From: Candidatus Zambryskibacteria bacterium RIFCSPLOWO2_12_FULL_39_16
GTDB lineage: Bacteria > Patescibacteriota > Minisyncoccia > Phycocordibacterales > WO2-35-19
NCBI GenBank assembly: GCA_001824215.1
Contig: MHWS01000002.1
Location: 1-37,797, forward strand
Direction: 5' to 3'
Length of the DNA: 37,797 nt
Shown: one piece after another, positions 30,849-34,710 of the stretch
How positions within the stretch are numbered: position 1 is the first letter of the stretch
How the letters are laid out: the number at the start of each line of letters is the position of its first letter
Position numbers and translations under genes: made by a program
The notes under the pieces: model-generated
Seen by the model: the letters and a program-made list of their open reading frames with translations, nothing else
Told to the model about the DNA's origin: nothing
The model's database searches: none

Positions 30849-33266
30849 ATGACCTTTAAAAAACTTAAAAAAATATCGGAGCCACATTTCTACTGCTTGT
30901 TTTTGGACAAGTTTTTTCCTAAGACTATCCGCAACATTTTAAGAAAAGGAGCAGCTCTGGCTTCTCTTGTTTCCTTTGCCCTTTCCTTTGATTCTCTGCC
31001 GCTTTATTTCAGCAAAGCAGACGGCTTATTTTTCTTTTTTATTTTTATCTACCTCACTCTTTCTTTCTTAGAATTTTTTTACCAATCAATGCGAGATGAA
31101 GGTTTGCGGGTAAGGGTAAGAGAAAGCATCATAAATAAAGATAAAATCATTGATTATGCTCTGTCTAGTATATTGTTTGTTACAAATGAAATTGATGTTA
31201 CCTTGGCTTTGTTTGACAGTAAAATTGGTGCAGAAATTCTTATAAGGTCAGGCATATCTCCAGAAAATTTTAAAAATTTTATTTATTCCGAAAGGCCGTC
31301 TATTATGGCCTCATCTTTAAATTTTAGAGATGAATCTGCCAACTTACTTTCATATCTGGATGTTATTTATGATACTGATAAAGCCTTCCAGTCCTTTCTT
31401 TCTCAAAATTCTGTAAATAAAGATGAGTTTATGGGGACTGCAAATTGGATAATGAATACAGAAGACAAAAAATGTAGACAAGGGAGATTTTGGAGCAGAG
31501 AAAATCTGGGAGCCATGCCATCAATTGGCACCAGCTGGTCATATGGAGAATCGGCAGATTTGGGGGAATATGGGGTACCTTTTGAAAACGTCACAAACAT
31601 TTCTTTGTTTGATATTGAAAACGGTTACCGAGACAGGGAAGTGAGGGCTCTCGAAGTAATACTTGAAAGAAGAGAAGAAGCTAATGCCATAATAATAGAC
31701 GACGACGAAAGAGTGGCAAGAGATATTGTTGGCAGGCTTTTAAAAAAGATTAAACTGGGAGTGACTCTGCCGTCTATTGAGCATAAAAATATTATTGAAC
31801 TTGATTCAAATTCCTTAATCGCTTCCTATAAAAATAAAGGCGAGTTTGAGGCGGAACTTTTAAAAATTTTGAACCAATCTGTTTCTGCCGGAAACATCAT
31901 TCTTTACATAAGAGATCTTTCAGGATTTTTGGGGAGCGCCAAAAACTTGGGGGTAAATTTGGCCTCTCTTCTTTCTCCATATCTTGCCTCCAAAAATCTT
32001 CAAATGATTGCTTCTGCGACCAATGCCGATTTTCACTTTTTTATTGAGACCAGTCCCACCCTTCTGGAAAAATTTGAAAGGATTATTCCTGATTCTGTTG
32101 GGGTGGAGGCCTCCGTCGGTGTTATTCTTGAACAAATTCCTTCCCTTGAAAAACAATACGGATTGGTTTTTTCATATCCTTGCATCTTAACTTTAGTCAG
32201 TACCGCCGATCGTTTTGTCACTTATGGAGAAATGCCGGGTAAAGCTCTCAGTCTGCTCACAGAAGTGGCCCCTTGGGCAGTAGAGCGGAAAATACATATA
32301 ATCAGAGAAAACGATGTAAATATTTTTGTTTCTGAAAAAACAGGCATCGTTACGGGAGCAATAAAAGAAAAGGAAGCGGAGAAAATAGAGCACTTGGAAG
32401 AACTTTTGCATAAAAGAGTTATTGGGCAGGACGAAGCGGTAAATGGCATCGCTGACGCTATCAGGCGATCGCGTTCGGGAATAGGCAATCCCAAAAAACC
32501 TCTGGCCTCTTTTCTTTTTATCGGGCCGACCGGAGTGGGCAAGACCGAAGTTTCAAAAGCTCTAGCCGAAAGTTTTTTTGGCGATGAGAAAAAGATGATT
32601 CGTTTTGATATGTCCGAATACAATGGGCCGGAAGCCATATCTCAGCTTATCGGAGATTTCACGGAGAACCGTAGCGGTCTTTTAGCGAGCAGAGTCAGAG
32701 ACAATCCATACAGCATCCTTTTGCTTGATGAATTTGAAAAAGCGGCACCGGATGTTTTGGATTTGTTTTTGCAGATTTTGGATGAGGGTATATTTACCGA
32801 TGCTTTAGGTAAGCAAGTGGGATGTCGCAACCTTATCATCATCGCCACTTCAAATGCCGGCAGCTCACTTATTTGGGATACAATCAAATCAGGCAAGAGT
32901 TTAATGAACTCAAAAGATTCAATCGTGAACTCAATCATAAAAGACAAAATTTTCCGACCGGAACTTTTGAATCGTTTTGATGGGGTTATATTTTTCCACC
33001 CATTGCAAAACAAAGAACTTGAAAATATTGCTAGGCTTGAACTTCAAAAATTGGGAAGGAGATTAAAAGAACAAAATATTGAACTGGTTATAAATGAAGA
33101 GATTATTAATTTTTTGGTAGAGAAGGGAAGTGACCCAGAGTTTGGTGGGCGCTCTATCAACCGAGCTATCCAAAACCAAATAGAAAATATTATTTCACGC
33201 AAAATAGTGAGTGGGCAGGCTAAACCCGGAAGTAAGATTGAAATAAAAAAAGAGGAGCTTCTATAA
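30849..33266 (+). CDS. Membrane-anchored Clp-family ATPase with degenerate D1 and intact D2
   Basis: N-terminal hydrophobic segments; D2 '[24 protein letters not shown]', 'ILLLDEFEKAAPDVLDLFLQILDEG'; no Walker A in the D1 region. Confidence 0.88.
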   Translation: MTFKKLKKISEPHFYCLFLDKFFPKTIRNILRKGAALASLVSFALSFDSLPLYFSKADGLFFFFIFIYLTLSFLEFFYQSMRDEGLRVRVRESIINKDKIIDYALSSILFVTNEIDVTLALFDSKIGAEILIRSGISPENFKNFIYSERPSIMASSLNFRDESANLLSYLDVIYDTDKAFQSFLSQNSVNKDEFMGTANWIMNTEDKKCRQGRFWSRENLGAMPSIGTSWSYGESADLGEYGVPFENVTNISLFDIENGYRDREVRALEVILERREEANAIIIDDDERVARDIVGRLLKKIKLGVTLPSIEHKNIIELDSNSLIASYKNKGEFEAELLKILNQSVSAGNIILYIRDLSGFLGSAKNLGVNLASLLSPYLASKNLQMIASATNADFHFFIETSPTLLEKFERIIPDSVGVEASVGVILEQIPSLEKQYGLVFSYPCILTLVSTADRFVTYGEMPGKALSLLTEVAPWAVERKIHIIRENDVNIFVSEKTGIVTGAIKEKEAEKIEHLEELLHKRVIGQDEAVNGIADAIRRSRSGIGNPKKPLASFLFIGPTGVGKTEVSKALAESFFGDEKKMIRFDMSEYNGPEAISQLIGDFTENRSGLLASRVRDNPYSILLLDEFEKAAPDVLDLFLQILDEGIFTDALGKQVGCRNLIIIATSNAGSSLIWDTIKSGKSLMNSKDSIVNSIIKDKIFRPELLNRFDGVIFFHPLQNKELENIARLELQKLGRRLKEQNIELVINEEIINFLVEKGSDPEFGGRSINRAIQNQIENIISRKIVSGQAKPGSKIEIKKEELL

Positions 33267-33331
33267 AATGGCTCAGTTAAGCTATTTTTAGGAAATAAGC
33301 GGGACAAAATCATATTCTTATGTCAAAAACA

Positions 33332-33359
33332 TTGACATATTTTTTAGCTGTGCTATACT
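33332..33359 (+). promoter_or_regulatory. Sigma70-type promoter
   Basis: TTGACA - 16 nt - TATACT. Confidence 0.75.
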
Positions 33360-33438
33360 GCTTAGGTAACTGATCTTTTCGTTAGTTCTACAGTGAGGTT
33401 GAGAGGTTTTTTAAGCTTGACCCCACAAGGAGTCAGCC

Positions 33439-33498
33439 ATGACCTATTCCCCGCCCAATGGGGTGAAGAGCATTTCCTTTATCGTTGAATCGGACTGA
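33439..33498 (+). CDS. Putative 19-aa small ORF MTYSPPNGVKSISFIVESD
   Basis: AAGGAG upstream of ATG; enclosed by promoter 33332-33359 and terminator 33539-33578. Confidence 0.45.
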   Translation: MTYSPPNGVKSISFIVESD

Positions 33499-33538
33499 CG
33501 ACGCCGGCGGCCGCGGCCATATGGCCCCGCCTGTAAGA

Positions 33539-33578
33539 CCCCCCTCAGCAGAGTATCGCTGAGGGGGTTTTGTTTTTT
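33539..33578 (+). terminator. Strong Rho-independent terminator
   Basis: CCCCCTCAGC-AGAGTATC-GCTGAGGGGG followed by TTTTGTTTTTT. Confidence 0.9.
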
Positions 33579-33594
33579 ATGTTAGGATAAAAAG

Positions 33595-34710
33595 ATGTCT
33601 AATTTTTGGAATGAAATGAAAAAGCCGATACTTTGTCTCGCGCCCATGGCTGATGTCACCGACGCGGCTTTTCGTCACATTATCGCAAAGTATTCAAAAA
33701 ATTCTCACAGCTATGTTACTTATACGGAATTTGTTTCTGCTGATGGATTGGTTTTAGCTCCGGAAAAAGGAAGAAAAAAGCTTTTGAAAGGTTTGGAATA
33801 TTCAGAAATTGAGAGACCTATTGTGGCCCAGTTTTTTACTAGCAGGCCGGAGATAATGGAAAAAGTGGCTGAGCTTGCGGTTATGCTTGGTTTTGATGGA
33901 ATAGATATAAATATGGGATGTCCGGATAAAAGTATAGAAAAACAGGGAGCTGGAGCGGCACTTATAAAGAATCTGCCCCTTGCTCGCGAGCTTATCAAAG
34001 CCGCGAAAAAAGGTGTAGCAGAAGCGGCCAAAAGATTAAATAAAGAAGAAATACCGGTCTCCGTAAAAACAAGGCTAGGTTATAACAAAGATGAACTGGA
34101 GACTTGGCTTCTTCTACTTTTAGCTGAAAATCCGGCGGCTATCATAATCCATGCCCGCACCAGAGAGGAGATGTCAAAAGTGCCAGCCAAGTGGGAGAGA
34201 ATCAAGAGAGCTGTTGAAATTAGAGATGAAATTCAGCCGTCTTCTTCACCAAAAGATCAAAAATGCACGGATATTTTCTTGCTAGAAAATTCCTCGTGCT
34301 CGGCTCAGTCAGCCTCGCAAGGCATTTTTGATTCTTTTAGTTCGAAGACTCGCACTCTTATTATTGGAAATGGTGATGTTGCAGACACTGACGACGCTAT
34401 AAAGAAGTGTCAAGAAACGGGGGCAGATGGAGCCATGCTTGGCAGAGCAATTTTTGGAAATCCGTTTCTTTTTTCTGAACAGACTCCGACTAATGAAGAA
34501 AAAATAAAAGTCTTGCTGGAACATACCAAACTTTTTGAAGAAAAATTCAGGGGGATAAAAAGTTTTGCTGTAATGAAAAAGCATTTCAAGGAATATTTGA
34601 AAGATCTTAGTGCGAGAGACCTTCGTTTCAAACTGATGAGGGCTGAAAATGCAGAAGAAGTGGAGGAAATGATAAAGGATTATTTACCCACATTGCTCTC
34701 TGTGAAGTAA
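33595..34710 (+). CDS. dus: tRNA-dihydrouridine synthase with an in-frame palindromic insert
   Basis: 'LAPMADVTDAAFRHII', 'GIDINMGCPDKSIEKQGAGAALIKN', 'VKTRLGY', 'IIHARTREE', 'IIGNGDV', 'GAMLGRAIFGNP'. Confidence 0.95.
   Translation: MSNFWNEMKKPILCLAPMADVTDAAFRHIIAKYSKNSHSYVTYTEFVSADGLVLAPEKGRKKLLKGLEYSEIERPIVAQFFTSRPEIMEKVAELAVMLGFDGIDINMGCPDKSIEKQGAGAALIKNLPLARELIKAAKKGVAEAAKRLNKEEIPVSVKTRLGYNKDELETWLLLLLAENPAAIIIHARTREEMSKVPAKWERIKRAVEIRDEIQPSSSPKDQKCTDIFLLENSSCSAQSASQGIFDSFSSKTRTLIIGNGDVADTDDAIKKCQETGADGAMLGRAIFGNPFLFSEQTPTNEEKIKVLLEHTKLFEEKFRGIKSFAVMKKHFKEYLKDLSARDLRFKLMRAENAEEVEEMIKDYLPTLLSVK
34251..34338 (+). repeat. Large in-frame composite palindrome in dus (copy G)
   Basis: Outer stem AAAAGATCAAAAATGC / GCATTTTTGATTCTTTT; inner hairpins CACGGATATTTTC/GAAAATTCCTCGTG and GGCT/AGCC. 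Confidence 0.8.

What the first reader, a model, noticed from the sequence alone, without database searches (positions are those of the whole stretch)
33332..33578. Isolated promoter-sORF-hairpin-terminator unit before dus
A near-consensus promoter (TTGACA-16-TATACT), SD AAGGAG, a 19-codon ORF (MTYSPPNGVKSISFIVESD), a GC-rich post-stop hairpin GGCGG(CCGC)GGCC-ATAT-GGCC-CCGCC and a strong terminator occupy about 250 nt, ending 16 nt before dus. This could be an sRNA, a microprotein gene or an attenuating leader for dus.
Basis: partly seen in the sequence, partly recalled or inferred. Interest (0 to 1): 0.62.

Follow-up and report, generated by a model that had tools for sequence, protein, structure and literature searches.

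The report
Short orphan peptide gene before dus
A real, self-contained mini-gene (strong promoter, ribosome site, 19-codon reading frame, terminator) sits before the dus gene of a tiny-genome bacterium; its layout is kept in sister species while its sequence changes almost completely, so it looks like one of many fast-evolving small genes rather than a switch for dus.

Summary
Window 33332-33578 carries an 11/12 sigma-70 promoter with extended -10 (the only 11/12 site in the window), SD AAGGAG, a 19-codon ORF, a GC-rich inverted repeat and an intrinsic terminator, 16 nt before dus. The genome is a Zambryskibacteria-type Patescibacterium. The unit occurs at the same clp-dus junction in four other species of the genus (a fifth shows the promoter before its contig ends). 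All five readable copies keep the order SD, ATG, short ORF (13-35 codons), stop, GCCGGC, terminator. The peptides do not align, and folds from SD to terminator score z about 0 to -3. SD-led ORFs occur in 0.5-1.6% of shuffles per copy, so translation starts seem selected although the peptide is not conserved. The unit is absent from two congeners and from nearly all other dus loci; dus has its own -10-like element; no antiterminator was found. The same genome has at least six more promoter-SD-small-ORF-terminator units (58-115 aa) against 0-2 in controls. Five such small genes were tested and four have no relative in 30 genomes. Best reading: an independent, fast-turnover orphan small-gene transcription unit, not a dus attenuator. 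The product is unproven. New member of a known kind.

The parts
33265..33289 (+). hairpin with T tail after the clp-like ATPase gene (its likely terminator), separating clp from the unit
   Evidence: the same AAAATGGCT..AGCCATTTT sequence in G003 and G004
33332..33359 (+). promoter TTGACA-16-TATACT with extended -10
   Evidence: conserved at the same place in G003, G004, G006, G007
33393..33426 (+). 5'UTR hairpin GTGAGGTTGAG / CTTGACCCCAC just before the SD; a G003 counterpart has one compensatory pair by eye
   Evidence: fold; z = -0.39 in G000, so weak on its own
33427..33432 (+). Shine-Dalgarno AAGGAG, 6 nt before ATG
   Evidence: SD-ATG in 5 of 5 congeneric units
33439..33498 (+). 19-codon ORF MTYSPPNGVKSISFIVESD, GC 48%, GC3 65%
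   Evidence: peptide not alignable to the congeneric ones
33503..33532 (+). GC-rich post-stop segment containing GCCGGC (33503-33508) and the hairpin GGCGG-CCGC-GGCC-ATAT-GGCC-CCGCC
   Evidence: GCCGGC follows the stop codon in 5 of 5 units
33540..33578 (+). intrinsic terminator, 10-pair stem and T tract
33580..33588 (+). TGTTAGGAT, extended -10-like element of dus itself
   Evidence: position conserved in G003 and G004
33595..34710 (+). dus (tRNA-dihydrouridine synthase, PF01207), the downstream neighbour, not part of the unit

Best explanation
An independent, constitutively strong, monocistronic transcription unit whose mRNA of about 210 nt is translated into a very short orphan peptide and ends at its own terminator. 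It is the shortest of a set of promoter-SD-small-ORF-terminator cassettes in the intergenic gaps of this Zambryskibacteria genome. These cassettes gain, lose and rewrite their sequence quickly while promoter, start signal and terminator persist. Shown here: anatomy, synteny, conserved start signals, lack of peptide conservation, recurrence of the cassette type. Inferred: actual transcription, translation, and any function of the peptide.
For: Same clp-dus position and same order of parts in G000, G003, G004, G005, G006 (the G006 copy is split over two contigs); promoter also in G007. SD-ATG-ORF present in 5 of 5, shuffle frequency 0.0045-0.0155 each; genome background 0.5% of 180-nt windows. 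Seven such cassettes in the genome against 0-2 in controls. Five other small cassette genes tested: four have no relative in 30 related genomes, none has a Pfam match. The groEL-lemA gap shows the same turnover of short strong-promoter units.
Against: The peptides (19, 13, 24, 18 and 35 aa) share no alignable sequence. In G004 and G005 homologous DNA around the stop codon is read in different frames, so the C-terminus is under no visible constraint. No transcript or proteome data exist here. The five units are related by descent, so the shuffle frequencies are not independent tests. The motif choice was partly post hoc.
Confidence: 0.55

Rival explanations
1. A trans-acting or structural small RNA; the short ORF is incidental or makes it a dual-function RNA.
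For: Size (about 210 nt), strong promoter and terminator; whole-transcript folds with terminators have z -2.5, -2.6, -3.3. Similar strong-promoter transcripts without an SD-led ORF lie before lemA and at C20:12930. A pre-SD hairpin has one compensatory pair between G000 and G003.
Against: Without the terminator the SD-to-terminator part folds like shuffles in most copies (z -0.15, 0.0, -0.85, -1.74, -2.99). No Rfam match. No alignable interior between most copies. SD-ATG is kept in 5 of 5.
Confidence: 0.24
2. A decayed or neutral remnant of a former small-gene cassette: the promoter still fires but the product does nothing.
For: Interior sequence is essentially unconstrained between congeners and the reading frame has shifted. 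It is the shortest of the cassettes. Absent in G001 and G002.
Against: A remnant should lose SD, ATG, -10 or terminator independently; these are kept in five species, although the neighbouring Clp ATPase is only 73-75% identical where compared (G003, G004, G005).
Confidence: 0.14
3. A cis-acting leader of dus in which translation of the short ORF sets read-through of the terminator (attenuation).
For: Leader-like order and 16-nt distance to dus; retained before dus in 5 of 8 congeneric genomes.
Against: No antiterminator pairing with the terminator arm clearly better than shuffles in any copy. dus has an adjacent extended -10-like element. In G004, G005 and G006 about 150 nt of other sequence separates terminator and dus. 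No amino acid is enriched in the peptides. Nearly absent before dus elsewhere: 5 of 80 loci gave any hit, one of them G003 itself.
Confidence: 0.07

Closest known systems
Orphan small-protein (sORF) genes as found by bacterial Ribo-seq (e.g. PMC11955535, PMC10117765; only the abstract openings shown by the search were read)
   Same: independent promoter, SD, ORF under 50 codons, terminator, no known family
   Different: here inferred from sequence only; no peptide conservation even within the genus
Dual-function sRNAs (e.g. RyhB/RyhP, PMC5331693; only title and abstract opening read)
   Same: a short transcript that could be both RNA regulator and mRNA
   Different: no conserved RNA segment or target found here
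Leader-peptide attenuators (trp/his type, from general knowledge)
   Same: promoter, short ORF, hairpin, terminator, then a gene
   Different: no regulatory codons, no antiterminator, downstream gene has its own -10-like element
Phage morons (from general knowledge)
   Same: self-contained promoter-gene-terminator cassette of deviating GC between conserved genes
   Different: chromosomal housekeeping context; the only phage matches cover the GC-rich/terminator end

Membership tests
independent small-ORF transcription unit | own promoter and own terminator | tested here: met
   (by sequence)
independent small-ORF transcription unit | translation initiation signal more than chance and kept in relatives | tested here: met
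   5 of 5 copies, 0.5-1.6% in shuffles
independent small-ORF transcription unit | conserved peptide or synonymous-biased substitutions (supporting, not required for an orphan gene) | tested here: not met
   peptides unalignable; no close strains available for a dN/dS test
independent small-ORF transcription unit | transcript and peptide detected | not testable with these tools
   no RNA-seq, Ribo-seq or MS data
leader-peptide attenuator of dus | mutually exclusive antiterminator/terminator pairing | tested here: not met
leader-peptide attenuator of dus | linkage of leader and regulated gene across relatives | tested here: not met
   (linked in 5 of 8 congeneric genomes only)
leader-peptide attenuator of dus | downstream gene depends on the leader promoter | tested here: inconclusive
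   own -10-like element at 33580-33588, but no transcript data
structured sRNA | known family or conserved fold | tested here: not met
   Rfam; no interior alignment, mostly weak z
tmRNA | match to the tmRNA model | tested here: not met
   tmRNA lies elsewhere, C5:7505-7912

The most novel reading that the evidence does not exclude
In this Patescibacteria genus, selection maintains short intergenic units for the act of strong transcription plus translation initiation, with promoter, SD-ATG, GCCGGC and terminator kept but peptide and RNA sequence free to change: a class of units whose function does not depend on product sequence, or whose product is under very rapid diversifying selection.
Probability: 0.15. 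Interest if true: 0.62.

Novelty: new member of a known kind. Interest (0 to 1): 0.3.

Why it matters
Patescibacteria have very small genomes, yet this one keeps several isolated, strongly promoted small-gene units with no relatives. If they are expressed, they are a reservoir of orphan peptides or RNAs in uncultured, probably host-dependent cells. The clp-dus site gives a clean comparative system of fixed flanks and changing interior in which to ask what is selected. For annotation, it warns that the unit should not be read as a dus regulator.

Tried and rejected
Rfam at gathering and relaxed thresholds: nothing relevant. Plasmids: no match; phages: a weak match over the GC-rich/terminator end only. 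The GCCGGC palindrome as a general cassette end or recombination site: the other three CGCCGGCG sites in the genome are not such cassettes. A shared 5' hairpin with the DEAD-box helicase gene on C4 (TAACTGA..TAGTT): one other such copy before a gene and not in congeners, probably chance. Antiterminator search: negative. tmRNA identity: excluded. Type I toxin-antitoxin: the peptide is not hydrophobic and no strong antisense promoter was found. Literature searches on Patescibacteria small RNAs or transcription starts gave nothing usable.

Full report
Observation. The sequence at 33332-33578 is as described. The promoter scores 11 of 12 with an extended -10 and is the only site of that quality in the window. 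Genome-wide there are four TTGAC-TGnTATAnT sites. The ORF, SD and terminator are real, and the composite is rare by chance: 7 in 530 kb against 0, 2 and 0 in Markov-model genomes. The interior is 53% GC in a 39% GC window.

Context. The unit lies between a Clp-type AAA ATPase gene (30849-33266) and dus (33595-34710; PF01207). The unit is single copy in its genome.

Comparison inside the genus. Of the eight congeneric genomes, five show a readable unit at the clp-dus junction: G000 (window), G003, G004, G005, G006. The G006 copy is split over two contigs, and no promoter matching the pattern was found in G005. G007 shows the promoter and its upstream hairpin just before its contig ends. G001 and G002 run from clp straight into dus. 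The clp terminator hairpin, the promoter and the dus start are well conserved, but the transcribed interior is not. The peptides are MTYSPPNGVKSISFIVESD, MTHCTHSASTAKN, MHARNRGAPMATIGTARANSNYRV, MMNYTRGAPTGMSVGDVL and MICFSLARRIVRAHSPPVVSRAPALSQAHYLAIKT. Still, every copy has an SD-led ATG, a stop codon, a GCCGGC soon after it and a terminator. SD-led ORFs of at least 12 codons occur in only 0.45-1.55% of dinucleotide shuffles per copy. The copies share ancestry, so these figures should not simply be multiplied. GCCGGC alone is weak evidence (2.7-17.7% in shuffles). Residual homology is visible for G004-G005 and G003-G006 at the 3' ends and weakly for G000 with G004 and G005. In G004 and G005 the homologous TTATAGAGT is read in different frames, so the peptide end is unconstrained.

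RNA reading. Whole transcripts fold somewhat better than shuffles (z -2.5 to -3.3), which their terminators largely explain: SD-to-terminator segments give z from 0.0 to -3.0, with G000 at -0.15. A hairpin just upstream of the SD occurs in G000 and G003 with one compensatory pair by eye; this is suggestive only. No Rfam family matches.

Leader reading. dus has its own extended -10-like element TGTTAGGAT at 33580-33588, and most relatives have their best -10-like hexamer about 10-23 nt before the dus start, although the excess over control windows is modest (14% against 6% at score 5.5 or more). About 150 nt of inserted sequence separates terminator and dus in G004, G005 and G006. No pairing of the terminator 5' arm with the leader clearly beats shuffles (G003 is the best at 22 of 300). 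Outside the genus, 80 dus loci show an SD-ORF-terminator pattern within 700 nt in only five, one being G003 itself. I reject the leader as the main function but cannot exclude partial read-through.

A class of small-gene units. The same genome has other stand-alone units with near-consensus promoters, good SDs, short ORFs of 58-115 aa and terminators. Of five small cassette genes tested, four have no relative in 30 related genomes and one has a 49% identical relative in G004; none matches Pfam. The groEL-lemA gap also carries different short strong-promoter units in G000, G003 and G004 and none in G002, G005 and G006. The dus-proximal unit therefore fits a pattern of fast-turnover small transcription units, of which it is the shortest found.

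An extra hint. Two of the six genomes with the unit or its promoter have contig breaks inside the unit (G006 and G007). This could mean population variation at the site or hairpin-related coverage loss. It was not tested.

Verdict. A genuine, ordinary-looking orphan small-gene transcription unit with unusual turnover. Transcription, translation and function remain unproven.

Noticed in passing
window 34251-34337 (inside dus): In-frame palindromic insertion in dus: arms AAAAGATCAAAAATGC / GCATTTTTGATTCTTT around a core GTGCTCGGCTCAGTCAGCCTCGCAAGGC. Three other core copies in the genome have different arms that look self-complementary. G003 dus carries another in-frame inverted repeat (L007 about 729-787).
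   Followed up: partly
L041 / L223 (G000 C1:20986-21696, minus strand): Two tandem strong-promoter transcripts without an evident SD-led ATG ORF between groEL and lemA; replaced by different units in G003 and G004 and absent in G002, G005, G006.
   Followed up: partly
L044 1501-1800 (G000 C20:12930, plus strand): Strong-promoter transcript with long complementary ends (TACAAATCTCTAAGCGGC / GCCGCTTAGAGATTTGTA), no Rfam match: candidate structured RNA.
   Followed up: no
L212 (G004 C9:15159, minus strand): Strong-promoter, apparently untranslated transcript with a boxA-like CAGCTCTTTAAC upstream of a Clp-like gene; a similar motif lies in the leader of the 76-aa gene at G000 C19:12833.
   Followed up: no
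G006 C15/C30 and G007 C14 (L210, L045, L209): Contigs end inside the clp-dus unit in two of the six genomes that have the unit or its promoter.
   Followed up: no
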